A DNA stretch of 39,517 nt, from positions 1-39,517 of the forward strand of contig NZ_QAAD01000029.1 in the NCBI RefSeq assembly GCF_003046625.1, given 5' to 3'. A program made the position numbers and the translations under genes. The first letter of the stretch is position 1; the number at the start of each line of letters is the position of its first letter. The DNA is from Mangrovibacterium marinum (GTDB lineage: Bacteria > Bacteroidota > Bacteroidia > Bacteroidales > Prolixibacteraceae). Below the pieces are notes generated by a model. That model was not told the DNA's origin. It did no database searches and saw only the letters and a program-made list of their open reading frames with translations. Below, in pieces: positions 8,615 through 26,566 of the stretch.

Positions 8615-8622
8615 TACTTTTG
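8615..8622 (+). promoter_or_regulatory. -7 box of the btuF operon
   Basis: TACTTTTG lies about 40 bases upstream of the first cobalamin riboswitch. The same box in nearly the same context (ATAATTTC-TACTTTTG) precedes the second riboswitch at 13388-13395. Confidence 0.6.
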
Positions 8623-8639
8623 CCTCTGTTTTTGGGTGG

Positions 8640-8815
8640 CTGGCTTCCTTTGTTGAACATTCAGGAAGCTGCCTTAAAAAGGGAATCCGGTGTAATCCCG
8701 GAGCAGTCCCCGCTGCTGTAAACCTCGCGAATTTTGCAGAACCCCCGCCACTGTCAGGCTACGGCCCGACGGGAAGGCATCGGCAAAAGAGGTGAGCCAG
8801 AAGACCTGCCCGAAA
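8640..8815 (+). ncRNA. Cobalamin (adenosylcobalamin) riboswitch 1
   Basis: The RNA carries the conserved pieces of the cobalamin aptamer in order: GGGAATCCGGTG, the GCTGTAAACCTCG junction, CCGCCACTG, GACGGGAAGGC and the B12 box AGCCAGAAGACCTGCC at 8795-8810. It lies 100 bases upstream of the btuF start. It is expected to shut the btuF-cobA-btuCD operon when adenosylcobalamin is abundant. The expression platform is not obvious. Both edges are approximate. Confidence 0.95.
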
Positions 8816-8910
8816 CAAACAGTATTAACCGGATCTTCGGGGAAAAAGGTCGTTGGAATACCCGTTCCATCCTTATCTTTTCTTCGAATCATCACATTTT
8901 TGATTCGTTC

Positions 8911-9753
8911 ATGAAAAACAGATTTCGACAAAATTTTTATCGCAAAACCGGCTTGCTGAGCCTGCTGTTTTTGCTGGTGGGGCTGTCGGTGCAGGCGGCA
9001 ACACCGCAGCGCATTATTTCGCTCGCGCCCTCACTCACCAAAAGCTTGTATATGCTTGGCGCCGACGATTTGCTGGTGGGTTGTACCAGTTTCTGCACCC
9101 TCCAAAAGCCCGACGATGCTGAAGTGGTAGCCTCGGCCGTGAAGGTGAATCTCGAGAAAGCCATGCTGCTGAAGCCCGACCTGGTGTTGACCAGCTCGCT
9201 GACCAGCCCCGAAACAAAACGGGCATTCGAAAAGCTGGGCGTTGAAGTGCTTTATTTTCCCTATCCCAAATCGTACGGGGAGATGTGCCGGTATTTGTTG
9301 CGTTTAGGTGAAAAGATTGGGCGCAAAGAACTGGCCGAAAAGCTGGTGGCCGAGTCGAAAGCGCGCCTGGCCAAGGCAATTGCTACGGTTCCCGCAACCG
9401 ATCATCAACCGCGGGTGTTTATGCAAATTGGCGCTAACCCGCTGTTTACCGTAGTTCCGAACACCTTTATGCAGGATTTTATCGACTTCTCGGGCTGCGA
9501 AAACATTGCCGCCGACCTGGAGATCGGCAGCATCACCCGCGAGGGCGTTTTGGTGCGTAACCCCGATGTCATCTTTGTGATTCTGATGGGCTCACTCAGT
9601 GTCGACGAAAAAGAAAAATGGGAATCGTATCCGGCGCTGAATGCCGTGAAGAACCACAAGATTTTTGTGCTCGACTCGGAAAAAACATGCAGCCCCACAC
9701 CGCTCGATTTTGTCGACGCCCTGGAGCAGATGATTGGAATGATCTATAATTAA
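8911..9753 (+). CDS. btuF: Cobalamin ABC transporter substrate-binding protein
   Basis: A periplasmic corrinoid-binding protein that delivers ligand to BtuCD. The 280-aa protein has a signal peptide (basic start, hydrophobic stretch, VQAA cleavage region near residue 30) and the helical-backbone metal-receptor fold. It opens with the RIISLAPS motif shared by BtuF homologues and includes a GADD-LLVG segment. The frame is open to 8734, but that extension is riboswitch RNA, so the ATG at 8911 is the start. It is the first gene after riboswitch 1 and sits with btuC and btuD. Confidence 0.93.
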   Translation: MKNRFRQNFYRKTGLLSLLFLLVGLSVQAATPQRIISLAPSLTKSLYMLGADDLLVGCTSFCTLQKPDDAEVVASAVKVNLEKAMLLKPDLVLTSSLTSPETKRAFEKLGVEVLYFPYPKSYGEMCRYLLRLGEKIGRKELAEKLVAESKARLAKAIATVPATDHQPRVFMQIGANPLFTVVPNTFMQDFIDFSGCENIAADLEIGSITREGVLVRNPDVIFVILMGSLSVDEKEKWESYPALNAVKNHKIFVLDSEKTCSPTPLDFVDALEQMIGMIYN

Positions 9754-10034: not shown

Positions 10035-10562
10035 ATGAAAAAAGGACTTGTTCACATTTATACCGGAAACGGCAAGGGCAAAACAACCTGCGCCGTTGGC
10101 CTGGGAACCCGGGCCTTGGGGCAGGGGTTTAAAGTAACCTATTGCCACTTTATGAAACGCCCCGAATTGTACGGCTATCACGAGATTGACAGCTTGAAAG
10201 CCCTGGGGGCAACCATCATGGGATTTACCGATGGACACCCCCATTTCAACAAGGAAGTAACGCCCGAAATGCTGCAAAAGCAGGTGGCCGAAGCCTTGGT
10301 GTACTTATCGGGCTATCTGCAAACGGCTAAACCCGACCTGATGATCATGGACGAAATTCTGATCACCGTGCGCGACGGTTTTCTCGAAGAAGATGTACTT
10401 TTGGACTTCGTGAACCAAAAGCCGGAAGGAACCGAGCTGGTGTTAACGGGCCGCGGAGCCACCCCAAAACTGATTGAGCGCGCCGATTACGTGAGCGAAA
10501 TCAACATGGTGAAACATCCCTACCAGCAGGGCATTCCCAGCCGAAAGGGGATTGAGTTTTAG
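10035..10562 (+). CDS. cobA: Cob(I)yrinic acid a,c-diamide adenosyltransferase
   Basis: Transfers the adenosyl group from ATP to the cobalt of corrinoids (BtuR/CobO/CobA family). The 175-aa protein has the P-loop GNGKGKTT at residues 11-18 right after VHIYT, then the MDEI Walker-B-like segment and a LTGRGA motif near the end, all typical of the family. The frame is open to 9921, but the extra part is translation of heptamer repeats; the ATG at 10035 gives the normal family length. It sits between btuF and btuC in the riboswitch-1 operon, so adenosylation is coupled to import. Confidence 0.95.
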   Translation: MKKGLVHIYTGNGKGKTTCAVGLGTRALGQGFKVTYCHFMKRPELYGYHEIDSLKALGATIMGFTDGHPHFNKEVTPEMLQKQVAEALVYLSGYLQTAKPDLMIMDEILITVRDGFLEEDVLLDFVNQKPEGTELVLTGRGATPKLIERADYVSEINMVKHPYQQGIPSRKGIEF

Positions 10563-10665
10563 AAGAAGTTCATAAGTACGATGTCCATAAGTTCCCGGCG
10601 GAAGTGGGCTTTTGGGCGACTTGTGTACTCATGAACTTTGGGACTTATGCACTAAAAGTGAAACA

Positions 10666-11685
10666 TTGAAAAATAACCCGAAATACCTGAAATGGCTGTT
10701 CGCCGTGATCGGATTGTCAGCGCTGTTGCTGTTTGCTGTACTGCTGTCGTTAAGCTCCGGTGAAATGAAAATTGGCCTCGGCGATGCACTGAAAATGCTG
10801 TTTGGCGGTGGCGATCCAGGCAGCATCGAATATATGCTGGTTCGGCAGGTTCGCTTGCCGCGCATCATCCTTGGTGTGGCTGTGGGCGGCGCTTTAAGCC
10901 TGGCCGGGGTCATCCTGCAAGGGGTCTACCGCAACCCGTTGGTCGAACCCTTTACGCTGGGCATCTCGGGTGGAGCTTCCCTGGGGGTGGCCATCACCAT
11001 TGTGTTTGGTTTGCACCTGGCATTTGGATCGTTTATGCTGCCGGTGGCCGGCTTCATTGGCGCTTTCCTGATTATCTTCCTGGTTTATACCATCAGCTCC
11101 CGCCGCGGAGCAATCGAGATTCAGCGTATGCTGCTGACAGGTGTCATGGTGAGCTTTGTCGCCTCATCGGCCATGATGTTCCTGATGTCCATAAGCACCA
11201 GCGAAAACCTGCATGGCATCATTTTTTGGATCATGGGATCGCTCGACGAGCCCGATGGCTTTCTGATTTGGCTCACCCTGATAGCAACCCTGGTGGTGTT
11301 GTTTCTGTCCTACTTCTTTGTTCAACCTTTAAATGCCTTGCGTTTGGGCGAAGAAAAAGCCATGCACCTGGGTATTAATACTAATGTAGCCGTTCGCATT
11401 CTGTTTTTGCTGGCCTCCTTGCTGGCAGGTATCTGCGTGTCGGTGGCCGGGGTTATTGGTTTTGTAGGGTTGATTATTCCGCACCTGTTGCGCCTGATTT
11501 TCGGCACCGACTACCGCATTTTGCTGATCAGCTCGTTTTTGTTTGGCGGTTCGTTTTTGGTGCTCTCCGATGTGCTTGCGCGAACCATTATTGCCCCCAA
11601 CGAGTTACCCATTGGGGTCATTACCGGCATTATTGGCGGGCTGGTGTTTATAGTGATGATGAGCCGTAAAAAGAACCTGGTATGA
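10666..11685 (+). CDS. btuC: Cobalamin ABC transporter permease
   Basis: Inner-membrane FecCD/BtuC permease with about ten predicted transmembrane helices. Recognisable motifs include VRLPR (cytoplasmic entry), GxSGGASLG in the pore helix region, and the conserved GxIGFVGLIIPHLLR segment that contacts the ATPase. No ATG precedes the first membrane helix. Candidate starts are TTG at 10612 and TTG at 10666; the second gives a natural lysine/asparagine-rich start (about 339 aa) and is chosen with low certainty. The stretch before it contains inverted AAGTTCAT / ATGAACTT pieces. It overlaps btuD by 4 bases, showing translational coupling. Confidence 0.92.
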   Translation: MKNNPKYLKWLFAVIGLSALLLFAVLLSLSSGEMKIGLGDALKMLFGGGDPGSIEYMLVRQVRLPRIILGVAVGGALSLAGVILQGVYRNPLVEPFTLGISGGASLGVAITIVFGLHLAFGSFMLPVAGFIGAFLIIFLVYTISSRRGAIEIQRMLLTGVMVSFVASSAMMFLMSISTSENLHGIIFWIMGSLDEPDGFLIWLTLIATLVVLFLSYFFVQPLNALRLGEEKAMHLGINTNVAVRILFLLASLLAGICVSVAGVIGFVGLIIPHLLRLIFGTDYRILLISSFLFGGSFLVLSDVLARTIIAPNELPIGVITGIIGGLVFIVMMSRKKNLV

Positions 11686-12482
11686 GCGAACACTTCTTCG
11701 AAATAAAAAATTATTCCTGCGGATATGCATCCTTCCGGTTGAACGATATCAGCTTCAGTTTGAAACGGGGCGCCTTTGCAGGGATTATTGGCCCCAACGG
11801 GTCGGGAAAAACCACCTTATTTCGGGGCATTTCCGGTACACTTCCCCCCCTGGCGGGTCAGCTGATCTTACAGGGAAAGCCGTTGAAGGAGCTTCCGCTG
11901 CAAAAACGGGCGCAAAATATTGCCATCGTAACGCAGACGGTCGATGCCGGGCAAATTACGGTGGAAGATTATGTGCTGATGGGCCGCATACCCTATCACT
12001 CGCGTTTCCAGTTTTTCGAAAGCAAACGCGATTACGAGCTGGCAACCAAGTATATGGAGCTAACCGGGGTTTTGCATCATAAAGACAAGCTGATGACCGA
12101 GCTGAGTGGGGGCGAGCAGCAGCGCGCAGCCATTGCCCGCGCATTAACGCAGGAACCCGAGTTGCTTTTGCTCGACGAGCCGACCTCACATCTCGACATT
12201 ACCCACCAGGTGCGTATTTTGAACCTGATTCAGCGCTTAAATGCCGAGATGGGCCTGACCGTTCTGATGGTGATTCACGATCTGAACCTGGCCTCGGAAT
12301 ACTGCGACCAGCTGATCATGTTCCAAAAGGGAAAGATATTTTTGCAAGGTGCACCCGATCAAGTGCTGACCTTCGATACCATCGAACAGGTTTATCAAAC
12401 ACCGGTCATTACCCGCATCAACCCGTATTCCAACAAGCCGGTTATCTTTTTGGTTAGCGAAAAGATGTTGAAAAAGCATTAA
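11682..12482 (+). CDS. btuD: Cobalamin ABC transporter ATPase
   Basis: The ATP-hydrolysing subunit of the BtuCDF importer. The 266-aa protein has Walker [10 protein letters not shown] at residues 37-45, a Q-loop glutamine near 85, the signature LSGGEQQR at 141-148, Walker B LLLLDEP at 161-167, a D-loop SHLD at 169-172, and an H-loop histidine in VIHDLN. The start overlaps the btuC stop by 4 bases. FecE-family iron transport is the alternative, but the riboswitch and btuF context make cobalamin far more likely. Confidence 0.94.
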
Positions 12483-12554: not shown

Positions 12555-13322
12555 ATGACACTAAAGTACGCGACCAAACTCGAGAATCCTGCTACCGATT
12601 ATCTGGCACATTTATCCATCGATTGTGTTGTTTTTGGTTTTCACGATAACCAGTTAAAAGTGCTTTTGTTGAAGTCGAAATACCTGGACGAATGGAGTTT
12701 GCCCGGTGGTTTTGTGATGCACTCGGAGACGGTGGAACAGGCCGCCCGCCGAACCCTGGAGGAACGAACCGGAGCCACCGATATTTTCATGCAACAATTT
12801 CGGGTTTTTAGCAACCCGGAGCGTAAAAATCCCATTTTTCAAAAAGAGAATATGCTGAAAGCCAATCTGAAGATGAACAATTTTGATTGGTTAAATCAGC
12901 GCTTTGTTTCCATTGGCTTTTATGCCTTGGTCGAATTTTCGAAGGTCGATGCAGCACCGGATATTTATTCCGAAGAATGTGTTTGGAAAAACGTTGACCA
13001 GGTTGGCCGGTTGATGATGGATCACAACCAGATTCTGACCGATGCGCTGGAAACCCTTCGCCTGCAATTGCGCCATCAACCCATTGGGTATAATTTGCTG
13101 CCCAACAAATTTACCATGCCTGAGTTGCAAAAGCTCTACGAAACCATTTTGGGCCGTGAGTTGGACCGTCGCAACTTTCAGCGTAAAATATTAAGCTACA
13201 AGATTGTGAAACGACTGCCCGAACGCCGTACCGGTGTGGCCTACAAAGCACCTTATTTGTACCGCTTCGATTTGGAGGAGTACAACAAAGCCCTGAGGGA
13301 AGGCCTCTCGGGCGATTGGTAA
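12555..13322 (+). CDS. NrtR-like Nudix-domain transcriptional regulator
   Basis: A 255-aa protein with an N-terminal Nudix domain (about 15-160) and a C-terminal winged-helix (about 170-250), the layout of NrtR/AraR-type regulators. The Nudix box spans residues 52-74, but two conserved glutamates are replaced: T67 for the glutamate after R66, and R71 for the second of the E-E pair. Metal-dependent hydrolysis is therefore unlikely and ligand sensing is likely; known family members bind ADP-ribose or sugars. It lies 72 bases after btuD and before riboswitch 2. Its ligand and targets are unknown. It may belong to the btu operon or have its own promoter. Confidence 0.85.
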   Translation: MTLKYATKLENPATDYLAHLSIDCVVFGFHDNQLKVLLLKSKYLDEWSLPGGFVMHSETVEQAARRTLEERTGATDIFMQQFRVFSNPERKNPIFQKENMLKANLKMNNFDWLNQRFVSIGFYALVEFSKVDAAPDIYSEECVWKNVDQVGRLMMDHNQILTDALETLRLQLRHQPIGYNLLPNKFTMPELQKLYETILGRELDRRNFQRKILSYKIVKRLPERRTGVAYKAPYLYRFDLEEYNKALREGLSGDW

Positions 13323-13387: not shown

Positions 13388-13395
13388 TACTTTTG
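13388..13395 (+). promoter_or_regulatory. -7 box of the btuB operon
   Basis: TACTTTTG precedes riboswitch 2, in nearly the same sequence context as the box at 8615-8622 before riboswitch 1. A UUCG-capped hairpin, GCTTGTG-TTCG-CACAAGC (13415-13432), lies between the box and the aptamer core. Confidence 0.6.
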
Positions 13396-13414
13396 TCGCG
13401 GATTTGGTTCCAGC

Positions 13415-13580
13415 GCTTGTGTTCGCACAAGCCGGATGAAAAGGGAATCCGGTGTGAATCCGGAGCTGTACCCGCAGCTGTAAACCTCGGTAATCTTTCT
13501 GAAACCCCTGCCACTGTTTCCAAACAAGCGAGACGGGAAGGCATCAGAAAGAGAGGTGAGCCAGAAGACCTGCCAAGACC
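13415..13580 (+). ncRNA. Cobalamin (adenosylcobalamin) riboswitch 2
   Basis: It has the same conserved elements as riboswitch 1: GGGAATCCGGTG, CAGCTGTAAACCTCGG, CTGCCACTG, GACGGGAAGGC and the B12 box AGCCAGAAGACCTGCC at 13559-13574. It lies about 150 bases upstream of the TonB-dependent receptor start codon. It is expected to repress receptor and assembly-gene expression in high adenosylcobalamin. Edges are approximate. Confidence 0.95.
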
Positions 13581-13727
13581 AATTTTTTAATCATAGCTTT
13601 CGGGATAAAAGCGTGAGATGAATTAATCATTCATTTATCCATTTTATTTCTTTTCATTCATTTTTCGATTTGGAAAGTATGAGAAAAGCTGTGGTTTGCA
13701 TTTATGTTTAACCATACTTTATTTTTA

Positions 13728-15875
13728 ATGAAAACAAACAAATTGAGATTTTCTTTGAGATTGGTTTTAGCGTCGGCTGCCTTTTGGGCCTTCAATCATG
13801 TGAATGCTGAAGTTATCGATACGCTGAATGTTGATGAAGTGGTCGTGAAGGCGTCAATACTGGATGTTAAACTAAAAAACATTCCACAAAAAATTGAAAT
13901 TATCGGTGAGGATGAAATTAAAACCGGGAATCAACAGAGCCTGGTCGAGGTCTTGAAGCAATACAGCAATATCGACCTGATTCAATACCCCGGAGTGAAC
14001 GCTACCATTAGTATGCGCGGTTTTTCGCCAAGTGCAGTATCACGCAGCTATACGTTGATCCTGATTGATGGCAAACCAGCAGGGACGACCAACCTGGCGG
14101 CTGTGAATCTGAACAATGTGGAGCGTGTTGAGATTGTAAAAGGCCCATATTCCGCAATTTATGGATCCGACGCCATGGCCGGCGTTGTCAATATTATCAC
14201 CAAGCAAGGGCAGGGAGACTGGACCGGAAATGCCTCGGTCGGATATGGTAGTTTTGAAACGCAAACAGCCGATGTTTTTGTAACCGGAGCACTTACCGAA
14301 GGGATTAATTTCAATGCCGGTTTCTCGCACAAGAAGAGCGGAAAAGACTACAAAATCGGGGACCATAACTTTCTGCATCTGTCCGAAAGCGATCAATTGC
14401 TTTTGGATAAGAACTCGTATGGCGACCGTATGGAAAACTCCCAATATGAGTTGAATGCGGTTAATGCAGGAGTGAACGGAAAATTTGGAGAAAAATGGTC
14501 TGCCAATGTCAATGCAGCTTACACTTATGGCAATAAAATAGGGTCGCCGGGAAACTACTGGGGAAGCTACGGACAAGCGATGAAAGACGTTCGCCGTTTG
14601 AATTTATATACCGACGTAGCCTATAAAACAGGGAAAAGTTCATTTCTGTTAAGTCCTTATTTTACACAGGAAAAAGATCCGAACTATTCGGACAACACTT
14701 CCGAAGGATTTATAAGCTTTGAAAGCCGTGTGCGTGAATATGGCTTCCAGTTTCAGGATATGATGACTTTCGGCCGGTTTAAAGCAACCGCTGGTGTGGA
14801 TTATAAAACCTACGACTACCACTCGGAACGTTATTCGGATGCGACAACACCTGCTGCTCCGTACAAACCGGATAACCGGAATTTAAATACCGCGGTATTC
14901 GGTCAGTTAACCTACTCGAAAGGAATCTTGGACTGGAACTTCGGCCTTCGTTACGATCACTTTAAATACGAATTGGATGCGAATGAAGATTTGAACTCGG
15001 TGAAGGCGGATGAAAACTACAACACCGTGAATCCAAACCTTGGTTTGCAGTTGCATTTGGCTGAGAACTTACGTTTCCATGCTTCTGCCGGATCGGCTTT
15101 TTTCGTTCCCGATGCTTATAAAGTAGCCGGTCAATACGAAGTTTCTGAATACTTTCCGGATTGGGACTATACCTGGGTTGCTTCGTACGTGGGGAATCCG
15201 GATCTGAAACCCGAAAAATCAAAAACGGTAGACTTCGGATTCAAATACAATGCCTTGAAACAGGCTTTCAATATCGACCTGACTTATTTCACGACCTATC
15301 ATAAAGATAAAATTGCAGAGACCACGTTGGAATCAGGTGAAACAACTTATATGAATGCTGACAAAGCCAGAATGTCTGGTTTGGAATTGATGTCTTCAGT
15401 CGACTTTGGAAAATTGGCCGATCAGAACTATAAATTGGAGCTGTATTCAAACTGGACATTCATGTTTAAATCGGAATTACAGATTGAAGATAATGGTAAT
15501 ACCTTGAAAAAGGATATGCAGTATGTGAGCAAGACAACAGGTAGTTTCGGTTTGTTCTACGATAGCTACAAAGGACTGATAAGTCGATTAAACGCCAGAT
15601 TTCTCGGATCTCGTTTGGAATCGGATCGCTTTGCGGTATTACGTCCTGCTTATTCAGCGGACAATTATTATACTCGGAAAGACTACGAAGCATCGGATAA
15701 GATTATTCACCATCCAAGCTATTTAATTTTCGACTACACATTAGGTTACAACTTTAAAAATGGCTTTAATGTGCAAGGATCGGTACTGAACCTTTTGGAT
15801 GAGAACTATACCGAAAAAGATGGATATAATATGCCGGGACGTAGTTTCTCAGTTAAATTAGGATATGCATTCTAA
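13728..15875 (+). CDS. btuB: TonB-dependent cobalamin receptor, BtuB-like
   Basis: An outer-membrane beta-barrel importer of corrinoids powered by TonB. The 715-aa protein (start at 13728) has a signal peptide ending near NHVNA, a TonB-box-like DEVVVKA segment, a plug domain with SMRGF, LILIDGKPAG, VERVEIVKGPYSAIYGSDAMAGVVNI motifs (the NIIT exit), and a barrel ending in aromatic phenylalanine (LGYAF). The alternative ATG at 13704 would add 8 residues before the signal. It is short and lacks a carboxypeptidase-like N-terminal domain, so it is BtuB-like rather than SusC-like. Its cobalamin role rests on riboswitch control and the cob neighbours. Confidence 0.93.
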   Translation: MKTNKLRFSLRLVLASAAFWAFNHVNAEVIDTLNVDEVVVKASILDVKLKNIPQKIEIIGEDEIKTGNQQSLVEVLKQYSNIDLIQYPGVNATISMRGFSPSAVSRSYTLILIDGKPAGTTNLAAVNLNNVERVEIVKGPYSAIYGSDAMAGVVNIITKQGQGDWTGNASVGYGSFETQTADVFVTGALTEGINFNAGFSHKKSGKDYKIGDHNFLHLSESDQLLLDKNSYGDRMENSQYELNAVNAGVNGKFGEKWSANVNAAYTYGNKIGSPGNYWGSYGQAMKDVRRLNLYTDVAYKTGKSSFLLSPYFTQEKDPNYSDNTSEGFISFESRVREYGFQFQDMMTFGRFKATAGVDYKTYDYHSERYSDATTPAAPYKPDNRNLNTAVFGQLTYSKGILDWNFGLRYDHFKYELDANEDLNSVKADENYNTVNPNLGLQLHLAENLRFHASAGSAFFVPDAYKVAGQYEVSEYFPDWDYTWVASYVGNPDLKPEKSKTVDFGFKYNALKQAFNIDLTYFTTYHKDKIAETTLESGETTYMNADKARMSGLELMSSVDFGKLADQNYKLELYSNWTFMFKSELQIEDNGNTLKKDMQYVSKTTGSFGLFYDSYKGLISRLNARFLGSRLESDRFAVLRPAYSADNYYTRKDYEASDKIIHHPSYLIFDYTLGYNFKNGFNVQGSVLNLLDENYTEKDGYNMPGRSFSVKLGYAF

Positions 15876-15920
15876 CAGCGACATGTACTATTCCCATCAG
15901 ATAATAATTAATGTTTGAAC

Positions 15921-15955
15921 GAATACTACCCTCATCTTCCCTGGGGGTAGTATTC
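15921..15955 (+). terminator. Hairpin after btuB (weak terminator or processing site)
   Basis: GAATACTACCC (15921-15931) pairs perfectly with GGGTAGTATTC (15945-15955) around a 13-nt loop. Only a short T-poor tail follows, so it may attenuate or stabilise the mRNA rather than fully terminate, keeping the downstream cob genes at lower expression. Confidence 0.5.
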
Positions 15956-15987: not shown

Positions 15988-16383
15988 ATGAAACTGACGA
16001 AATTCTTTTTAAGCCTGATGTTACTGCTGGTTGTCAGCGTGGCAGGCTTTGCAGCAAAAGGTAAATTTATAACAGTTGAGATTAATTACGGCGATCAGAA
16101 AGCGGCAGAGACAATTCAGGTTGAATGTCCGAAAGCAATGACAGCTCTGGAAGCCTTGCAACACGCCGCCGATGTGAAAACTCATCCGGTCAATGAATAC
16201 GTCTTTGTAACTTCAATTAACGAGGTGACTGGTGTGCGTGGCCAAATGGCCTGGTATTACACCGTCAACGGCCAAAAGCCGAAACTGGCCATCAGCCAGA
16301 TCGTAAAAGCCGGAGATACCATTAGCTGGCGCTACGTGAAGGACGTTTGCTCCTGCACGGTTGACGGGCCTAAGAAAAAGTAA
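15988..16383 (+). CDS. Exported DUF4430 / transcobalamin-like C-terminal domain protein
   Basis: A 131-aa secreted protein. Residues 1-23 form a signal peptide with no lipobox. The mature part is a single DUF4430 domain, the family that includes the C-terminal cobalamin-contacting domain of animal intrinsic factor and transcobalamin. Visible family marks are TALEALQHA (52-60), W89-Y90 with the VNG turn at 93-95, and the GD-xIxWRY ending (109-116). A C-S-C pair (121, 123) and a basic tail follow. It sits between the BtuB-like receptor and cobU under riboswitch 2. A role in holding corrinoid in the periplasm or at the receptor is inference. DUF4430 also occurs in proteins unrelated to B12. Confidence 0.85.
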   Translation: MKLTKFFLSLMLLLVVSVAGFAAKGKFITVEINYGDQKAAETIQVECPKAMTALEALQHAADVKTHPVNEYVFVTSINEVTGVRGQMAWYYTVNGQKPKLAISQIVKAGDTISWRYVKDVCSCTVDGPKKK

Positions 16384-16586
16384 GCAGTGATCAGTTGCAG
16401 TGCTCAGTGAAGGAAAGCATTTCCGGATTGTTTCTTGTCATTTACAGAACATTCGGTGAAACTCTGTGACGAACTCGGAGTACTCTGTGGTAAAAAAGAA
16501 AGTCTTGAGTATTGAGTTTTTTTTCTCATGTCTCACGACTCATGTCTATTTTTGGAACATTAAACTCGAAATTTGGAACTCAAGGA
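16384..16586. repeat. Repeat-rich spacer before cobU
   Basis: Contains pieces of the repeats that fill the other gaps of the B12 locus: a CAGTGATCAGTTGCAGTG run, ACTCTGTG and CTCTGTGGTAAA fragments, and TGAGNNN heptamers facing CTCANNN heptamers at about 16503-16518 and 16525-16548. No gene seen. Confidence 0.6.
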
Positions 16587-17096
16587 ATGGCAAAAATTAC
16601 ATTGGTAACCGGAGGTGCCCGATCGGGCAAAAGCAGCTTTGCCCAGCAAATGGCCGAGGCGAAAAGCGAGCGGCCAGTGTACCTGGCAACCGCCCGGATA
16701 TGGGATGAAGACTTTGCGCAGCGGGTGAAGCGCCACCAGGCCGACCGCGATGAACGTTGGGTAAATGTGGAAGAAGAAAAGCAGCTCTCGAAACATGATT
16801 TCAGCGGCAAAGTGGTGCTGATGGACTGTGTGACCTTGTGGCTGACGAACTTTTTCCACGATAGCGAATATAAACTTGATGAAGCGCTGGAAGCCGCCAA
16901 AGCCGAATGGAAACTGTTTATTCAGCAGGATATGGAGCTGATTGTGGTGACCAACGAGCTGGGCATGGGTGTTCACCCCGAGCATGAGGTGGCACGCAAA
17001 TTTGCCGACTTGCAGGGCTGGATGAACCAGCACATTGCCAAAGGAGCTGATGCTGTTTACCTGTTGGTTTCCGGTATTCCGGTGAAGATAAAGTAG
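16587..17096 (+). CDS. cobU: Adenosylcobinamide kinase / adenosylcobinamide-phosphate guanylyltransferase
   Basis: A bifunctional enzyme that phosphorylates adenosylcobinamide and transfers GMP to give adenosylcobinamide-GDP. The 169-aa protein has the P-loop GGARSGKS at residues 9-16, a YLATAR segment with a following D, the RHQADR motif with the catalytic histidine, a DCVTLWLTN motif and the VTNELGMGVHPE segment, all family hallmarks. Upstream codons to 16512 are translated heptamer repeats, so the ATG at 16587 is the start. Confidence 0.96.
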   Translation: MAKITLVTGGARSGKSSFAQQMAEAKSERPVYLATARIWDEDFAQRVKRHQADRDERWVNVEEEKQLSKHDFSGKVVLMDCVTLWLTNFFHDSEYKLDEALEAAKAEWKLFIQQDMELIVVTNELGMGVHPEHEVARKFADLQGWMNQHIAKGADAVYLLVSGIPVKIK

Positions 17097-17257: not shown

Positions 17258-18262
17258 ATGAATATTAAATCTCAGCTTCAACACAAAATTGACCTGAAAA
17301 CAAAGCCGACCGGTGCTTTGGGTCAGCTGGAACAGATTGCCTTGCAAATTGGTTCCATTCAGAACAGCTTGACACCCGAGTTGAAAAGCCCGGCGATGTT
17401 GGTTTTTGCCGGCGACCATGGCCTGGCCGATGCCGGAGTGAGCCCTTACCCCAAGGAAGTAACCTGGCAAATGGTGATGAACTTCTGCGCCGGTGGTGCG
17501 GCAATCAACGTGTTCTGCAAACAAAACGGCATCAGCCTGAAAGTGGTCGACGCTGGTGTGGACTTTTATTTTCCGAAGGAGCTGCCGGTAGTAGACTGCA
17601 AGGTTGCCATGGGTACAAAGAATATGCTCGAAGAGCCGGCCATGACTCCCGAACAATGCCGCGAAGCCATGAATCACGGGGCCGAACTGGTGAAGGCCGA
17701 GGCGGCAGCTGGCAGCAATGTGATTGGTTTTGGTGAAATGGGAATCGGGAATACGTCGGCCTCGTCGCTGTTGATGCACCGCTTTCTGAACCTGCCGGTT
17801 GAACAATGTACCGGACGTGGTACGGGCATGGTGGGCGATCAACTTGATTATAAAATATCAGTATTGAAGAAGGTTGCCGAAAAGTATAATCCGCAAACAG
17901 TGGAAGAGACCCTGGCCACTTTTGGAGGCCTCGAAATTGCCATGATGACCGGCGCTATCCTGGAAGCTAAAAAGCAAAGCATGGTCATTTTGGTCGATGG
18001 ATTCATCACTACGGCAGCTACCTTAACAGCTATTCAGTTCGACGGCTCGGTGCGCGACAACTGCATCTTTTGCCATGCCTCGGAAGAGCAGGGGCACCAG
18101 CTGATTCTGAAACACCTGGAGGCCCAGCCTGTGCTGTCGATGGGCATGCGTTTAGGCGAAGGATCCGGCGCAGCGGTAGCTTATCCGGTAATTAAATCGG
18201 CCGTTACCTTCCTGAACGAAATGTCGAGTTTTGAAGACGCCGGCGTTTCCAATAAAGAATAA
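17258..18262 (+). CDS. cobT: Nicotinate-nucleotide-dimethylbenzimidazole phosphoribosyltransferase (copy 1)
   Basis: Makes the alpha-ribotide of the lower-ligand base from nicotinate mononucleotide. The 334-aa protein matches canonical CobT. It has the KTKPTGALG N-terminus, GDHGLADAGVSPYP around D53-H54-G55, GGAAIN at 79-84, a VDAGVD motif, GFGEMGIGNTS, and the RLGEGSGAA motif with the general-base glutamate E301. It lies downstream of cobU and upstream of cobS, the normal order for nucleotide-loop assembly. A second, more divergent copy is at 22344-23417. Confidence 0.95.
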   Translation: MNIKSQLQHKIDLKTKPTGALGQLEQIALQIGSIQNSLTPELKSPAMLVFAGDHGLADAGVSPYPKEVTWQMVMNFCAGGAAINVFCKQNGISLKVVDAGVDFYFPKELPVVDCKVAMGTKNMLEEPAMTPEQCREAMNHGAELVKAEAAAGSNVIGFGEMGIGNTSASSLLMHRFLNLPVEQCTGRGTGMVGDQLDYKISVLKKVAEKYNPQTVEETLATFGGLEIAMMTGAILEAKKQSMVILVDGFITTAATLTAIQFDGSVRDNCIFCHASEEQGHQLILKHLEAQPVLSMGMRLGEGSGAAVAYPVIKSAVTFLNEMSSFEDAGVSNKE

Positions 18263-18510: not shown

Positions 18511-19278
18511 ATGAAAAAGCAATTTCAGCTCCTCTTAACAGCTATCATGTTTTACACGCGCATTCCGGTGCCGGCAAGCCTGGAATACTCGCCGGAACGC
18601 CTGAACAGGGCAACGCGGTATTTCCCGTTCATTGGCTGGATTGTCGGTGGAGTAGGGGCTGCTGTTTTTTATGGTTTGATGCAAATTTTACCATTGCAGG
18701 TGAGTGTGTTCCTGAGTATGCTTGCTACGATTTTCGTCACCGGAGCGTTTCACGAGGATGGCTTTGCCGATTTCTGCGATGGTTTTGGCGGCGGCTACAC
18801 CCGCGAGAAAATCCTCACCATCATGAAGGACAGCCGCATCGGCACCTACGGTTCGGTTGGCTTAGTGGGCATGCTGGGAACCAAGTTTCTGGCCCTTCAG
18901 TCTATGCCGGTTGGTGTGATTCCCCTGGCGATGGTTGCTGCTCATGCGTTTAGCCGCCTGATGCCGGTATTGATCATCTTTACCAGCTGGTATTCGCGCG
19001 ACGACGAGACCAGCAAAAGCAAGCCTATTGGCAAGAAAGGAAAACGCAGCGACCTGATAATCGCCATCTTCTTCGCCTTGATCCCCACGGTTTTTCTACC
19101 GTGGCAGCTTATGGCTGTTGCCCTGCCCTTAGCCTTGCTGGCCACCCTTCGCTTTAAAAAATACAGCGAGCGCAAAATTGGCGGCTACACCGGCGACGGC
19201 CTGGGTGCCCTGCAGCAGTTGATCGAGCTGCTGTTTTATCTGTGTTTGCTGGGTGTGGTCCACTTCGGGCTGCTGTAA
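18511..19278 (+). CDS. cobS: Adenosylcobinamide-GDP ribazoletransferase (cobalamin synthase)
   Basis: Joins alpha-ribazole (or its phosphate) to adenosylcobinamide-GDP in the inner membrane. The 255-aa polytopic protein has the conserved metal-binding HEDGFADFCDG motif at residues 81-91, an early FYTRIPVP motif near 14-21, GGxTxxKIL-type MKDSRIGTYG, and a KIGGYTGDGLGALQQ segment near the C-terminus. It starts 26 bases after the MITE-like element. Confidence 0.96.
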   Translation: MKKQFQLLLTAIMFYTRIPVPASLEYSPERLNRATRYFPFIGWIVGGVGAAVFYGLMQILPLQVSVFLSMLATIFVTGAFHEDGFADFCDGFGGGYTREKILTIMKDSRIGTYGSVGLVGMLGTKFLALQSMPVGVIPLAMVAAHAFSRLMPVLIIFTSWYSRDDETSKSKPIGKKGKRSDLIIAIFFALIPTVFLPWQLMAVALPLALLATLRFKKYSERKIGGYTGDGLGALQQLIELLFYLCLLGVVHFGLL

Positions 19279-20085: not shown

Positions 20086-20619
20086 ATGATCATTACCACC
20101 ATTCGCCATACCCGGGTTGATGTGCCAGCGGGTGTTTGCTACGGGCAAACCGATGTTCCGCTGGCTTCCACTTATACGGAAGAAATGGCCGCTGTAAAGA
20201 CGCAAACCGATTGGTATCAGTTTGATGCGGTGTATTGCAGCTCGCTGAGCCGTTGCCGCCGATTGGCCGAAGATTTGTTTCCACGTGAAACCATTTTGTT
20301 TGATGAGCGCCTGATGGAGCTGAATTTTGGCCGCTGGGAAATGCAAAAGTGGGACGACATGGACCACACGGCCGAGGCGCAGGCCTGGTTCGCTGATTTT
20401 GTTGATGTGCGAACTCCCCAAGGCGAGTGCTTTCGCGATCAGATAAACCGGACGGCCGACTTTTTGAAAGACCTGAAATTAACCGGTTACAAGCGTGTTG
20501 CGGTGGTTACGCATGGCGGCATCATCCGGGCGCTGCATTGCCTGCTAAACGGCACAAAGCCCGAGGATGCTTTTCAGAATAAAGTGAATTACGGTGAGGT
20601 TGTGGAATTTGAGACTTGA
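20086..20619 (+). CDS. cobC: Alpha-ribazole phosphatase-like histidine phosphatase
   Basis: Histidine-phosphatase (phosphoglycerate mutase-like) of 177 aa, expected to remove the 5'-phosphate from alpha-ribazole phosphate or adenosylcobalamin phosphate. The phosphohistidine is H8 in IRHT, where threonine replaces the usual glycine as commonly seen in CobC-type proteins. Other marks are the early CYGQTDVPL segment typical of alpha-ribazole phosphatases, E78 in MELNFGRWE, and H143 in VTHGG. The position after cobU, cobT and cobS supports the assignment over other phosphatases. Confidence 0.9.
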   Translation: MIITTIRHTRVDVPAGVCYGQTDVPLASTYTEEMAAVKTQTDWYQFDAVYCSSLSRCRRLAEDLFPRETILFDERLMELNFGRWEMQKWDDMDHTAEAQAWFADFVDVRTPQGECFRDQINRTADFLKDLKLTGYKRVAVVTHGGIIRALHCLLNGTKPEDAFQNKVNYGEVVEFET

Positions 20620-22270: not shown

Positions 22271-22343
22271 GGCGCACTTTCGGAGGGGCGCCGCACGATT
22301 GGAGCACGAGGCGTTTCCTTCCCCGAAAATCAACAAAAACCAA

Positions 22344-23417
22344 ATGCAACAAAACGAATTTGAAATCCCCGGAATTGACGAGGGATTACGCGAGGGCATT
22401 CAGCATAAGCTCGACAACAAAGCCAAGCCGGTAGGATCGCTTGGCCGCCTGGAGTCGCTGGCCATGCAGGTGGCGCTCATTCAAAATACACTGACACCGG
22501 AATTGCGAAAACCGGTGATGTTGACCGTGGCATCGGACCACCTGATTTGTGCCGAGGGGGTGAGCCCTTGCCCGGTTGAAATTACCTGGCAACAGGTGCT
22601 CAACTTCCTGCAAGGCGGTGGCGGCATCGGGCTGTTGTCGCGCGTGTATGGCATGGACCTGCACGTGGTGGATGCCGGGGTGAATTTCGATTTCGCACCG
22701 CACCCGAAACTGATCGATGCGAAGGTTCGCAAAGGCACGCGCAACTTTTTGTACGAGCCGGCCATGACGATGGACGAGTGCATGCAGGCCTTTAACAACG
22801 GGCGCCGCATTGTGGCAAAGTTCAACGACGAAGGCACTAACATCATCGGTTTTGGCGAGATGGGCATTGGCAACACAACGCCCGCTTCGGCGCTGATGTC
22901 CATCATTTGTAAGCTTCCGGTGAAGGACTGCGTTGGCCCGGGCGCGGGCTTGGATAAAGATGGTGTATCGCACAAAGGCCGCGTGATTGAGCAGGCCATT
23001 GCGAAGCATGGCGTGTCGGAAAATGTGCTGGAAAACCTGGCGTGCTTTGGTGGTCTCGAAATCGCCACAATTGCCGGTGGAATGTTCGAAGCAGCCGCCC
23101 GCCGCATGGTCATCCTGGTCGATGGGTTCATTACCACCGCCGGCATGCTGGTGGCATCGGAACTGAACCGCAAGGTGCTCGACTACGCCGTGTTTGCACA
23201 TGTGTCGGACGAGCAGGGGCACCACAAAATGCTGGAATATATGAAGGCTGATCCGGTGCTGGCTTTTGGCCTTCGCCTGGGTGAAGGAACCGGCGCAGCG
23301 CTGGCTTTCCCGATGATGCAAGGCGCCGTGGCGGTACTTTCGGAGATGACTTCGTTCGAGGAGGCGCAGGTGGTGAACACCAGCCATATTCGGTTTGAAG
23401 AAGAGGCGGAGAAGTGA
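22344..23417 (+). CDS. Divergent second CobT-family phosphoribosyltransferase
   Basis: A CobT paralogue of 357 aa. It keeps KAKPVGSLG, VDAGVNF, GFGEMGIGNTTPAS and the RLGEGTGAA motif with general-base E314. It differs at base-pocket segments: the usual DHG is D65-H66-L67, and GGAAIN is GGGGIG (91-96). It could activate a different lower-ligand base, act as a partner of copy 1 (as ArsA/ArsB do for phenolic bases), or be redundant. An upstream frame to 22299 starts with TTG; the ATG at 22344 fits the family. It has its own promoter box and is followed by cobQ after a 669-base repeat-filled gap. Confidence 0.9.
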   Translation: MQQNEFEIPGIDEGLREGIQHKLDNKAKPVGSLGRLESLAMQVALIQNTLTPELRKPVMLTVASDHLICAEGVSPCPVEITWQQVLNFLQGGGGIGLLSRVYGMDLHVVDAGVNFDFAPHPKLIDAKVRKGTRNFLYEPAMTMDECMQAFNNGRRIVAKFNDEGTNIIGFGEMGIGNTTPASALMSIICKLPVKDCVGPGAGLDKDGVSHKGRVIEQAIAKHGVSENVLENLACFGGLEIATIAGGMFEAAARRMVILVDGFITTAGMLVASELNRKVLDYAVFAHVSDEQGHHKMLEYMKADPVLAFGLRLGEGTGAALAFPMMQGAVAVLSEMTSFEEAQVVNTSHIRFEEEAEK

Positions 23418-24086
23418 TCAGTGATTAGTTGCAGTGCTCAGTCGCAGTGTTCAGTTGGAAGAGGTCAGGGATGGTCATTCAGTTGTCATTGTTGGTCAAT
23501 AATTGATCGGACTCCGAGAAACTCTGTGCCGACCTCCGTGTCCTCTGTGGTTAAAGAGAAAGTAACTGAAACGCCGTTTGCACGTCCTTGTTTTCACCCT
23601 CTGACTCCCTGAAGGGAGAACCAAACAAGGACTGCATTGCAGGGCGCGCTAATATTGATTTGAAAAGCTGAAGCCAAGTCCCTTTAGGGGATTTAGGGGT
23701 GAAATATACGGAAGCAGGAGTATTGGATGACAGTCGTTGATAGTCATTGATGGTCAATAGTTGTTGTACAAAAAATAGCGGATATTGTGACACGAGTTTT
23801 CTTTTAATACTCAAGACTACTCAGTGAAACTCTGTGGCATACTCCGTGTTCTCTGTGGTTAAAAAAGAACACCGAGACGCCGTTTGCTCGTCCTTGTTTT
23901 CACCCTCTGACTCTCTGAAGGGAGAACCAAACAAGGACTGCATTGCAAAGTGCATCAGTATTGATTTGAAAAGCTGAAGCCAAGTCCCCTTTAGGGGATT
24001 TAGGGGTGAAAATGTAATGAGTTTCATGCAGTACCAATACTCAGGTCTGTTTGAAACTTGAAATATATAACGTGGAACTAGAAACA
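23418..24086. repeat. Composite repeat R2 copies B and C
   Basis: No gene. Copy B (about 23514-23782) and copy C (about 23822-24012) are tandem and both in minus orientation relative to copy A at 20678-20945. Shared landmarks are CTCTGTGGTTAAA, GACGCCGTTTGC or AACGCCGTTTGC, CGTCCTTGTTTTCACC, CTGAAGGGAGAACCAAACAA, TTGATTTGAAAAGCTGAAGC and TTTAGGGGATTTAGGGGTGA. A CTCAGTCGCAGTG run precedes copy B and TGAGNNN-type heptamers lie at 23806-23822. Confidence 0.8.
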
Positions 24087-25565
24087 ATGAATAAACTCAA
24101 ACCCATCATGTTTGTTGGCACCGGCTCCGATGTGGGCAAGTCGGTGATTAACGCTGCCTTTTGCCGCATCTTCAAGCAGGACGGCTACCAGCCCGCGCCC
24201 TTTAAGGCGCAGAATATGTCGCTCAACTCCTTTGCCAGTGCCGAAGGTCTGGAGTTGGGACGGGCACAGGCGGTACAAGCCGAGGCCTGCGGCATTCCCT
24301 GCCTTAGTGCCATGAACCCGATCCTGTTGAAACCGACTAGCCACACCAAGTCGCAGGTCGTGTTGAACGGCAAACCGCTGGGCGACCAGTCGGCACAGGA
24401 ATATTTCCTGAAAACCGACCGCCAGTTTCTGTTCGACGAGGCCATGAAAGCCTGGCGCTCGCTGGATGAAAAGTATAACCCCATTGTGATGGAAGGCGCC
24501 GGGAGCATCTCCGAGGTCAACCTGTGGGATAAGGATATTACCAACATGCGCATTTCGCTGGCCACGGGTGCGCCAACCATCCTGGTGGCCGACATCGACC
24601 GCGGTGGTGTGTTTGGCAGTGTTTACGGCACCATCAAACTGTTGCCCGAGGCCGAACGGAAACTCATCAAAGGCATTCTCATCAACAAGTTCCGGGGCGA
24701 TATTGCCTTGTTTCATGATGGCCGTAAGATGCTGGAGGAGCTGACCGGTGTTCCGGTGATTGGCGTGGTTCCCTATTTCAGCGACATCCACATTGAGCAG
24801 GAAGACAGCGTGGTGATCGACTACAAGCGCGGCAGTGTGAAAGATGACGGCAAGGTGAATGTGGCGGTGGTTTTGCTGCGGCACATGAGCAACTTCACCG
24901 ACTTCAACATGCTGGAGCGCATGCCCGATGTCAACCTGTATTACTCGGCCAACCCGGCCGAGATTGCCAAGGCAGATCTGGTGTTGGTGCCGGGCTCGAA
25001 GAACACCATTTCCGACCTGATGTACCTGCGTGAACGTGGCCTGGCGAAAGCGATTCTGCAGGCTGCCGAAGCGGGCAAAGGCGTTTACGGTATCTGCGGT
25101 GGTTACCAGATTTTGGGCGAAGAAATTCGCGATCCGCACCATGTCGAAGGCGAGATTGAGGCCATTCCGGGACTCGGTTTGTTGCCGGTTGTCACAACGC
25201 TCACTAAAGACAAACGCACGGTGCAAACTGCCTTCAAATTTGCAGGTCGCGAGGAAGATTGCTCGGGCTACGAGATCCACATGGGAACAACTGACCTGAA
25301 AGGTGGCGAACCTTTATGTGCCCTGAATGACGGTGGTACCGACGGTTGCCGGGTATCGCCGAAACTGTGGGGAAGCTATCTGCACGGCATTCTCGACAAT
25401 AAAGCGGTAGTTGAAGAAATGCTGAAGGCGAACCAGCTGAAGGCTGAAGTGACCGAATTCGATTACGCCAAATTTAAAGAAGAACAGTACAATAAACTCG
25501 CCGATCATGTTCGTGCCTATGTGGATATGGATTACGTGTACTCGGTGATGCAAATAGAAGAATAA
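24087..25565 (+). CDS. cobQ: Cobyric acid synthase (glutamine-hydrolysing)
   Basis: Amidates adenosylcobyrinic acid a,c-diamide at four side-chain carboxylates using glutamine and ATP. The 492-aa protein has an N-terminal P-loop-like GTGSDVGKSV at residues 11-20 with the KAQNMSLNSF motif next, a VADIDRGGVF segment, and a C-terminal class-I-like glutaminase domain with nucleophile C337 in YGICGGYQ and H433 in SYLHGI. The frame is open to 24051, but the ATG at 24087 starts the recognisable domain. Its presence means the cell can use incomplete corrinoids as well as cobinamide. Confidence 0.97.
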   Translation: MNKLKPIMFVGTGSDVGKSVINAAFCRIFKQDGYQPAPFKAQNMSLNSFASAEGLELGRAQAVQAEACGIPCLSAMNPILLKPTSHTKSQVVLNGKPLGDQSAQEYFLKTDRQFLFDEAMKAWRSLDEKYNPIVMEGAGSISEVNLWDKDITNMRISLATGAPTILVADIDRGGVFGSVYGTIKLLPEAERKLIKGILINKFRGDIALFHDGRKMLEELTGVPVIGVVPYFSDIHIEQEDSVVIDYKRGSVKDDGKVNVAVVLLRHMSNFTDFNMLERMPDVNLYYSANPAEIAKADLVLVPGSKNTISDLMYLRERGLAKAILQAAEAGKGVYGICGGYQILGEEIRDPHHVEGEIEAIPGLGLLPVVTTLTKDKRTVQTAFKFAGREEDCSGYEIHMGTTDLKGGEPLCALNDGGTDGCRVSPKLWGSYLHGILDNKAVVEEMLKANQLKAEVTEFDYAKFKEEQYNKLADHVRAYVDMDYVYSVMQIEE

Positions 25566-25609: not shown

Positions 25610-25639
25610 TCAGTGAAGCCCTCAATAACAGAAAGCTCA

Positions 25640-26566
25640 ATGGAACTCCTCATACTTCCTTTACTAATTGGTTTTGCAGTGGACTGCCTGTTGGGCGATC
25701 CGCGATGGTTGCCGCACCCGATCCGCTTGTTTGGCTGGCTGATTGCCTGGTTCGAAAAGCGCTTTAACCAAGGAAATCACCGCAAATTGAAAGGTGCACT
25801 GACATCTGTCTTGTTGGTTGGCGGTACTTGGTTGTTGCTGTTTCTTTTGTTCGGATGGTTGAAGAGCTTTCCGACCATTTACCTGATGATAGCATCGGCA
25901 GGTGTCTTCTTTGGCCTGGCCAATCGAAGCTTGATTTACGAATCGTGGCTGGTGATCCGGGCCTTGCAGCGCGACGGACTGGAAGCCGGCCGCAAGCAAC
26001 TGAGCTACATTGTTGGTCGCGATACCACGAAGCTCAATGAGCAGCAAATCCGCACGGCAGTGCTCGAAACCATGGCCGAAAACCTCAGCGACGGAGTAAT
26101 CGCGCCCCTGTTTTTTTATGCTCTAGGCGGCGTTCCGGGGCTTTTCGCTTTCAAAATGGCCAGCACCCTCGACTCGATGATTGCCTACAAAAGCGAGCGC
26201 TTTAAAAGCTACGGCTGCTTTGCCGCCCGATTGGATGATTTGCTCAACCTCATTCCTGCCCGCCTGACAGCTTTGCTGATGGTTTTGGTGAGTCTGAGTT
26301 GGAGTGGCCTGACACATATTTTCCGCTACGGACATCAACATGCCAGCCCCAATGCCGGTTATCCGGAATCGGCTTTGGCCGGAATCCTGAAATGCCGCTT
26401 CGGAGGGCCGAATGTTTATCATGGGAAGATGGTCGAGAAGCCCTACATCGGCCATCATCAAAAGCAAATCACCACCCGCGATTTTTGGATGGCGGCTTAT
26501 GTGAATACCGCAACGGCTGTGGTGATGGTTGGCGGGATTGTGGCGGTGTATTTGACGTGTATTTGA
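25640..26566 (+). CDS. cbiB: Adenosylcobinamide-phosphate synthase
   Basis: Membrane enzyme (CbiB/CobD family) that attaches aminopropanol phosphate to adenosylcobyric acid. The 308-aa protein has the family N-terminus with GDPRWLPHPIRLFG, a YIVGRDTTKL segment, the ETMAENLSDGVIAPLFFY motif, a NTLDSM-like STLDSMIAYK region, and SPNAGYPESALAG near the C-terminus, all hallmarks. Several transmembrane helices are predicted. The frame is open to 25613; ATG at 25640 is the natural start. It is the last gene of the B12 block. The decarboxylase that makes aminopropanol phosphate is not in this window. Confidence 0.96.
   Translation: MELLILPLLIGFAVDCLLGDPRWLPHPIRLFGWLIAWFEKRFNQGNHRKLKGALTSVLLVGGTWLLLFLLFGWLKSFPTIYLMIASAGVFFGLANRSLIYESWLVIRALQRDGLEAGRKQLSYIVGRDTTKLNEQQIRTAVLETMAENLSDGVIAPLFFYALGGVPGLFAFKMASTLDSMIAYKSERFKSYGCFAARLDDLLNLIPARLTALLMVLVSLSWSGLTHIFRYGHQHASPNAGYPESALAGILKCRFGGPNVYHGKMVEKPYIGHHQKQITTRDFWMAAYVNTATAVVMVGGIVAVYLTCI

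What the first reader, a model, noticed from the sequence alone, without database searches (positions are those of the whole stretch)
15988..16383. Transcobalamin-like exported protein inside a riboswitch-controlled B12 operon
A single-domain exported DUF4430 protein lies between a BtuB-like receptor and cobU, under a cobalamin riboswitch. DUF4430 is related to the C-terminal cobalamin-contacting domain of animal intrinsic factor and transcobalamin. W89, the VNG turn at 93-95 and the GD...WRY end are seen directly. The hypothesis is that this is a free-standing bacterial corrinoid-binding module that captures or hands over B12 in the envelope, distinct from the surface lipoproteins BtuG and BtuH known in Bacteroides.
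Basis: partly seen in the sequence, partly recalled or inferred. Interest (0 to 1): 0.75.

Follow-up and report, generated by a model that had tools for sequence, protein, structure and literature searches.

The report
Transcobalamin-like protein in bacterial B12 operons
A small exported protein, shaped like the half of human B12 carriers that first grips the vitamin, sits beside the outer-membrane receptor in vitamin B12 uptake operons of several bacterial phyla, and probably carries B12 across the bacterial envelope.

Summary

I examined 38 loci, the window included: 27 Bacteroidota, 10 Planctomycetota, one Smithella. A TonB receptor is adjacent in 36; a cobalamin riboswitch lies upstream in 34, and the other four contigs end within 2.8 kb. 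Nine other or doubtful DUF4430 matches had no riboswitch.

The subfamily ends in Asp-x-Cys-Ser/Thr, in 37 of 37 readable members. The receptor gene differs even within one genus while this gene stays. Seven loci also carry a BtuG-like lipoprotein.

Best reading: a periplasmic corrinoid-binding protein working under the TonB receptor, probably passing corrinoid towards BtuF. Fold and linkage are shown; binding, location and hand-over are inferred. Burroughs et al. 2007 predicted B12 scavenging for this domain family, so this is a new variant of a known kind.

The parts
15988..16383 (+). Exported solo DUF4430 / transcobalamin beta-domain-like protein (131 aa); conserved F73, W89, Y90 and C-terminal D119-V120-C121-S122
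13388..13591 (+). Cobalamin riboswitch (RF00174, 113 bits) heading the receptor-DUF4430-cobU stretch
13704..15875 (+). TonB-dependent receptor (723 aa), Cir/BtuB-like; stands where genus mates L015 and L017 have a BtuB + BtuG-like pair
15921..15955 (+). Intercistronic hairpin (14-nt arms, 93% complementary) just before the DUF4430 gene; also where DNA homology to genus mates resumes
16587..17096 (+). cobU, adenosylcobinamide kinase / guanylyltransferase (PF02283)
17258..18262 (+). cobT-type phosphoribosyltransferase (PF02277), first copy
18511..19278 (+). cobS (PF02654)
20086..20619 (+). cobC-type histidine phosphatase (PF00300)
22299..23417 (+). second cobT-type phosphoribosyltransferase (PF02277)
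24051..25565 (+). cobQ-type cobyric acid synthase (PF07685, PF01656)
25613..26566 (+). cbiB/cobD (PF03186)
8617..8827 (+). Second cobalamin riboswitch (101 bits), ahead of the BtuF-CobO-BtuCD genes
8857..9753 (+). BtuF-like periplasmic binding protein (PF01497), proposed acceptor of the corrinoid
10038..10562 (+). cobO/btuR corrinoid adenosyltransferase (PF02572)
10612..12482 (+). btuC-like permease (PF01032) and btuD-like ATPase (PF00005)

Best explanation
The gene encodes a soluble, envelope-located corrinoid-binding protein built from the beta domain of the transcobalamin / intrinsic factor / haptocorrin family without the alpha domain. When corrinoid is scarce the riboswitch lets the operon be expressed; the receptor brings cobalamin or cobinamide through the outer membrane; the DUF4430 protein catches it in the periplasm on its beta-hairpin face and keeps it for hand-over to BtuF and BtuCD, after which CobU/CobT/CobS remake or repair the cofactor. 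Shown here: the gene, its predicted fold, its subfamily motif, its linkage to receptors and riboswitches. Inferred: corrinoid binding, periplasmic location, hand-over, and any role of the conserved Cys121.
Against: No binding data exist. The alpha domain, which helps give animal carriers sub-picomolar affinity, is absent. The hairpin loop is about 7 residues shorter than haptocorrin's in the profile alignment and the stretch with Arg357 and Trp359 has no counterpart. The protein is dispensable: 22 of 140 family genomes carry it, the own one included, and one of these (G507) keeps only a fragment. BtuF is already present for the periplasmic step. CbiC occurs in 12 of 21 genomes tested (20 carriers and the archaeon of L045), the own genome included, so scavenging is often not the only source. 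BtuL of B. thetaiotaomicron is a B12-operon lipoprotein for which no cobalamin binding was observed (PMC12751083, passages), so context alone does not prove binding.
Confidence: 0.6

Rival explanations
1. Extracellular or vesicle-borne corrinophore: the protein is released or surface-bound and captures B12 outside the cell for the receptor, as BtuG or the BtuJ proteins do.
For: Signal-peptide-like starts; lipobox-like cysteines in L029, L031, L115 and doubtfully L044; one related architecture, L020, is a DUF4430-propeller protein with a type IX secretion tail in a riboswitch locus.
Against: 34 of 38 show no lipobox-like match; the window protein shows no sorting tail in Pfam (the relatives were not scanned for one); where a BtuG-like lipoprotein exists the DUF4430 protein is an additional gene. 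L029, L031 and L115 lack the acidic stretch after the cysteine seen in the BtuG-like protein of L014 (read by eye; the rule that such a stretch marks surface export is recalled).
Confidence: 0.17
2. Non-binding accessory protein, for example a receptor assembly or vesicle factor comparable to BtuL.
For: BtuL shows that B12-operon lipoproteins need not bind cobalamin (PMC12751083, passages). The closest tie is to the receptor gene (36 of 38).
Against: The fold is that of a corrinoid-binding domain and an aromatic aligns with a corrinoid-contacting position; it pairs with three receptor types.
Confidence: 0.12
3. It handles a different cobalt ligand: cobalt ion or a cobalt chelate, or another tetrapyrrole, rather than cobamides.
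For: In 7 of 10 planctomycete loci the next recognised gene is CobN/chelatase-like with a signal-like start (Pfam run on two of the seven); the conserved Cys121 could bind metal; cobalamin riboswitches also control cobalt uptake (recalled); the window receptor scores best on a haem-receptor model, below its cut-off.
Against: In Bacteroidota the neighbours are corrinoid salvage genes and BtuFCD; the L014 receptor matches solved Bacteroides BtuB, and the L103 receptor scores best on the TonB-B12 model (338.9 bits, below its cut-off of 599.7).
Confidence: 0.1

Closest known systems
Transcobalamin / intrinsic factor / haptocorrin C-terminal beta domain (Pfam PF14478; InterPro name recalled)
   Different: No alpha/alpha-toroid domain, shorter hairpin loop, extra C-terminal Asp-x-Cys-Ser/Thr just past where the animal domain ends in the structural alignment, Gram-negative envelope, TonB-receptor operon.
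Transcobalamin-like SLBB clade of Burroughs et al. 2007 (PMC1796856)
   Same: Stand-alone exported beta-grasp domains with a hairpin insert, predicted to scavenge B12.
   Different: The operon evidence in the section I read is CbiO/CbiQ neighbours; the passages list low-GC Gram-positives, planctomycetes and euryarchaea for this clade, and name Bacteroidetes only for other clades; TonB-receptor operons were not mentioned in what I read.
BtuG (DUF5074-type) and BtuH/BtuJ lipoproteins of Bacteroides
   Same: Accessory corrinoid proteins encoded beside BtuB in riboswitch-controlled operons.
   Different: Lipoproteins of other folds (BtuJ: jelly roll, DUF4465, PMC12751083 passages; BtuG: propeller, recalled). 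Seven of the 38 loci carry both a BtuG-like lipoprotein and the DUF4430 protein.
BtuF
   Same: Periplasmic corrinoid carrier step.
   Different: Other family (PF01497); both genes occur in this window.
3u7z, RUMGNA_00854 of Ruminococcus gnavus ('putative metal binding protein')
   Different: From a Gram-positive; the passages I read of one of the two papers listed for it give no function; the other paper was not read.

Membership tests
PF14478 DUF4430 / transcobalamin-like beta-grasp clade | Pfam profile above curated cut-off | tested here: met
   45.8 bits against 23.8
PF14478 DUF4430 / transcobalamin-like beta-grasp clade | Fold of the transcobalamin beta domain including a hairpin after the helix | tested here: met
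PF14478 DUF4430 / transcobalamin-like beta-grasp clade | Hydrophobic or aromatic residue in the hairpin region at a corrinoid-contacting position | tested here: met
   F73, in the second hairpin strand of the model, aligned to haptocorrin Tyr362 (weak profile alignment, E 0.02)
[quoted passage not shown]
   131-aa single-domain protein
Corrinoid-binding protein | Binds cobalamin or cobinamide | not testable with these tools
   Needs purified protein
BtuG / BtuH / BtuJ surface lipoproteins | DUF5074 or DUF4465 domain and lipobox | tested here: not met
   Only DUF4430 reported at E 0.001; no lipobox-like match
TonB-dependent BtuB (window receptor) | NCBIfam TonB-B12 equivalog above cut-off | tested here: not met
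   141.7 bits against 599.7; the Bacteroides-type BtuB of L014 also fails it (102.3 bits)

The most novel reading that the evidence does not exclude
The subfamily is a corrinoid carrier in which the protein's own conserved C-terminal cysteine (Cys121) supplies a thiolate ligand to the cobalt, a built-in counterpart of glutathionylcobalamin: it would trap aquo- or incomplete corrinoids in the periplasm as a cobalt-sulfur adduct and release them by reduction or ligand exchange at hand-over. The Cys is present in 37 of 37 readable members, is the only cysteine after residue 25 in 16 of 38, is not found in this motif in the DUF4430 proteins outside the subfamily that were compared, and lies just beyond where the animal domain ends in the structural alignment; in haptocorrin that C-terminus borders the loop occupying the glutathione site of transcobalamin (PMC11107200, passages).
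Probability: 0.2. Interest if true: 0.78.

Novelty: new variant of a known kind. Interest (0 to 1): 0.57.

Why it matters
If it binds corrinoids, Gram-negative B12 uptake has a carrier step between the TonB receptor and BtuF that the standard BtuB-BtuF-BtuCD scheme lacks, and the domain that animals use to grip B12 first is seen doing the job alone in bacteria. That would make a prediction from 2007 directly testable in named hosts that carry the gene, such as Draconibacterium, Mangrovibacterium and Sunxiuqinia. The conserved cysteine offers a specific chemical hypothesis, and the exchange of the neighbouring receptor shows that B12 uptake operons are assembled from swappable parts.

Tried and rejected
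Sequence searches of the PDB with the protein alone (five antibody chains at E above 0.5), with A1, A2 and the archaeal relative found no B12 carrier; only the mixed profile A3 did. Its haptocorrin and intrinsic factor hits are weak on their own (E 0.02, 0.15); the fold comparison carries the argument.

A conserved histidine (T65-H66-P67) looked at first like a cobalt ligand, because all 9 sequences of A1 have it. It fails in the wider set: H in 27 of 38, with Q 4, R 3, Y 2, K 2. Rejected as a general ligand.

A hairpin before the gene as a general feature was rejected: the 80 nt upstream fold at z -2 or lower in 10 of the 37 loci scored (L019 left out), and the 80 nt downstream, taken for comparison, do so in 9 of 36. 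In L016 and L028 the 80-nt stretch was neutral although longer intergenic folds gave hairpins; one search folded 16 chosen loci.

Strict scavenging (no own corrin synthesis) was rejected for many: CbiC found in 12 of 21 genomes tested (20 carriers and the archaeon), the own genome included.

'All DUF4430 proteins are B12 proteins' was rejected: L047 has no B12 context. Matches outside the subfamily in L023, L045, L047, L109, L110, L111, L112, L113 and L117 showed no riboswitch in the stretch fetched (0 of 9); L109 is a 4.1-kb contig, and L023 (below the Pfam cut-off) and L113 (20.8 bits with A2) are weak matches that may not be DUF4430 proteins. Two partial matches in larger proteins, L020 and L022, do lie in riboswitch loci; L022 is below the Pfam cut-off.

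Bias: one search used two peptide patterns, one from the C-terminal region up to the conserved Asp, and profile A2 contains the Cys column, so the 37 of 37 for Cys121 is partly favoured by how relatives were found. The 38 loci are not independent: L101 and L103 are near-identical, L101 and L102 lie in one genome, seven loci (L013, L032, L033, L037, L038, L039, L120) are close Draconibacterium-type kin. In the tree the bootstrap had not settled and several branches are long.

Full report
What is there. The window carries a long B12 region on the + strand: riboswitch (8617-8827), BtuF-like, CobO, BtuC-like, BtuD-like, a NUDIX/NrtR-type regulator, a second riboswitch (13388-13591), a TonB-dependent receptor (13704-15875), the DUF4430 gene (15988-16383), CobU, a CobT-type phosphoribosyltransferase, CobS, a CobC-type phosphatase, a second CobT-type gene, CobQ and CbiB. 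The DUF4430 match is 45.8 bits over residues 52-117. The gene is the only DUF4430 match in its 4.6-Mb genome. dN/dS is 0.18 against L015 and 0.15 against L017; synonymous sites are near saturation against L014 and saturated against L016. The genome has five cobalamin riboswitches.

Why a beta domain alone could work. Bloch et al. 2017 (PMC5599065; parts 1 and 2 of 4 read) expressed the human transcobalamin beta domain alone and solved it apo and with cyanocobalamin, cobinamide and an antivitamin. Bokhove et al. 2024 (PMC11107200; [quoted passage not shown]

Neighbourhood survey. Relatives were collected with Pfam PF14478 in 81 genomes of relatives (12 with a match at E 0.01 or better, 10 over cut-off, the own genome included) and in 392 genomes of the phylum (2 with a match, one being the own genome), with A1 in genome contigs (22 loci), and with profile A2 in 140 genomes of the family (22 with a match), 295 of the order (6) and 246 of the phylum of the Scalindua genome (13), the centre genome included each time. 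Thirty-eight loci of the subfamily, the window included, were examined: 27 Bacteroidota, 10 taken as Planctomycetota (two named, eight unnamed from that phylum search) and one Smithella. A TonB-dependent receptor gene is directly upstream in 21, upstream with one lipoprotein gene between in 14, and directly downstream in 1 (L036). The remaining two are L019, whose contig starts 70 nt before the gene, and L114, where a cobalamin riboswitch lies 144 nt directly before the DUF4430 gene and no receptor was recognised beside it. A cobalamin riboswitch lies upstream on the same strand in 34 of 38; L019, L021, L026 and L036 have under 2.8 kb before the contig ends. cobU is the next recognised gene in 23 of 27 Bacteroidota (exceptions L029, L030, L114, L116). 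In 7 of the 10 planctomycete loci the next recognised gene is CobN/chelatase-like with a signal-like start (PF02514 checked on two of them); in Scalindua (L041) it is btuF; L044 and L105 end at the contig edge.

Receptors. The 644-aa receptor of L014 matches solved Bacteroides BtuB (8bmx, 8p98, 8p97; E 1.7e-38 to 5.1e-36), and its lipoprotein is DUF5074 and matches the solved 'YncE family' chain 8blw_B, which I take to be BtuG (recalled). Of the 14 intervening lipoproteins, 7 are BtuG-like by BLAST (L014, L015, L017, L018, L021, L115, L116) and 7 are of the L013 type (L013, L032, L033, L037, L038, L039, L120), for which Pfam reported PKD domains and no DUF5074 in the one scanned. The window's 723-aa receptor is of another type (nearest solved: Cir, then others including E. 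coli BtuB), shared with L016 (60.6% identity) and others. Against genus mate L015, DNA homology runs to 13647, is absent through the receptor, and resumes at 15917, next to the hairpin before the DUF4430 gene; against L017 the two points are 13647 and 15920. The own genome has no homologue of L015's BtuB (E 1e-20) or BtuG-like protein (E 0.001). In the protein tree the window groups with three BtuB-plus-lipoprotein loci (100/97), and starred branches force at least two changes for that label and at least two for the Cir-like label. The receptor is therefore exchangeable and the DUF4430 protein stays, which favours a role common to all receptors, after passage through the outer membrane.

A subfamily signature. 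In the 38 members W89 and Y90 are invariant, N94 is present in 37, and the C-terminal Asp-x-Cys-Ser/Thr is present in all 37 that reach that point (Cys 37, Ser 35, Thr 2; L044 is cut by the contig end). The Cys is the only one after residue 25 in 16 members, so an intramolecular disulfide is not possible there. The DUF4430 proteins outside the subfamily that were aligned (L045, L047, L109, four repeats of L110, L112, L117; L111 and L113 were not) lack this motif; L109 has a Cys at that place in a different setting. The last aligned residue of the model against transcobalamin is 97, which is D119, opposite chain residue 409, so the Cys lies two residues beyond. PMC11107200 describes the haptocorrin beta-domain C-terminus as bordering the alpha7/alpha8 loop that occupies the glutathione site of transcobalamin. 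A cobalt-thiolate role is my inference and untested; the way relatives were found favours this motif (see Tried and rejected).

Location. By eye all 38 start with a hydrophobic export-signal-like stretch; lipobox-like cysteines occur in L029, L031 and L115, and doubtfully L044 (pattern and eye only). I infer the periplasm.

Against the reading. No binding has been measured; 22 of 140 family genomes carry the gene; BtuF is already present; CbiC in the own genome suggests de novo capacity (12 of 21 genomes tested); and B. thetaiotaomicron BtuL shows that a B12-operon protein may not bind cobalamin (PMC12751083, passages; section 5 read).

Known or new. Burroughs et al. 2007 (PMC1796856; abstract, passages and section 7 part 1 of 2 read) defined the transcobalamin-like clade, reported stand-alone exported bacterial members, and predicted B12 scavenging from operons with CbiO/CbiQ. 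Full-text searches for DUF4430, transcobalamin-like with bacteria, BtuG/BtuH with Bacteroides and riboswitch, solo transcobalamin domain with outer membrane and periplasm, transcobalamin with TonB-dependent and riboswitch, 3U7Z and IPR027954/PF14478 listed no title or abstract that I recognised as a study of such a protein in a Gram-negative TonB-receptor operon; the library is open-access only, the listings were capped, and I read only the papers named. PMC8941943, PMC13398666, PMC13385337 and PMC6143338 were seen as passages. Verdict: new variant of a known kind, with a strong contextual case and an untested function.

Noticed in passing
window 15921-15955: Strong hairpin between the receptor and DUF4430 genes; similar-looking hairpins at the same place in L014, L015, L017, unrelated ones in some other loci. 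It lies at the downstream edge of the receptor exchange.
   Followed up: partly
L103:7894-11934, L107:3392-7474 and other planctomycete loci: A CobN/chelatase-like protein of about 1350 aa with a signal-like start follows the DUF4430 gene, and in L103 an ExbB-like protein lies after it. Looks like an envelope cobalt or corrinoid handling system of its own.
   Followed up: partly
L020:8357-10675: A 773-aa protein with a DUF4430 domain, PQQ-type propeller repeats and a type IX secretion tail in a locus with a cobalamin riboswitch and a DUF5074 lipoprotein: another architecture of the domain near B12 uptake genes.
   Followed up: partly
L045:8291-9357: In a Baldrarchaeota genome the DUF4430 gene directly follows an ECF transporter S-component-like gene, with no riboswitch in the stretch.
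   Followed up: no
L119 (G507): In this genome only residues 2-56 of the profile are recognisable, and no DUF4430 frame of 80 aa or more lies between the lipoprotein and cobU genes, so the gene can be lost.
   Followed up: partly
window 17258-18262 and 22299-23417: Two cobT-type phosphoribosyltransferase genes (PF02277) in one cluster, possibly for different lower ligands.
   Followed up: no
window 16446-16497, 23506-23557, 23814-23865; 20633-21012; 23565-24005: Interspersed direct repeats between cob genes, with an IS200-type transposase gene at 19506-19958.
   Followed up: no
window 12555-13322: A NUDIX / NrtR-type regulator gene lies between btuD and the second riboswitch and is kept in L014, L015 and L017.
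   Followed up: no
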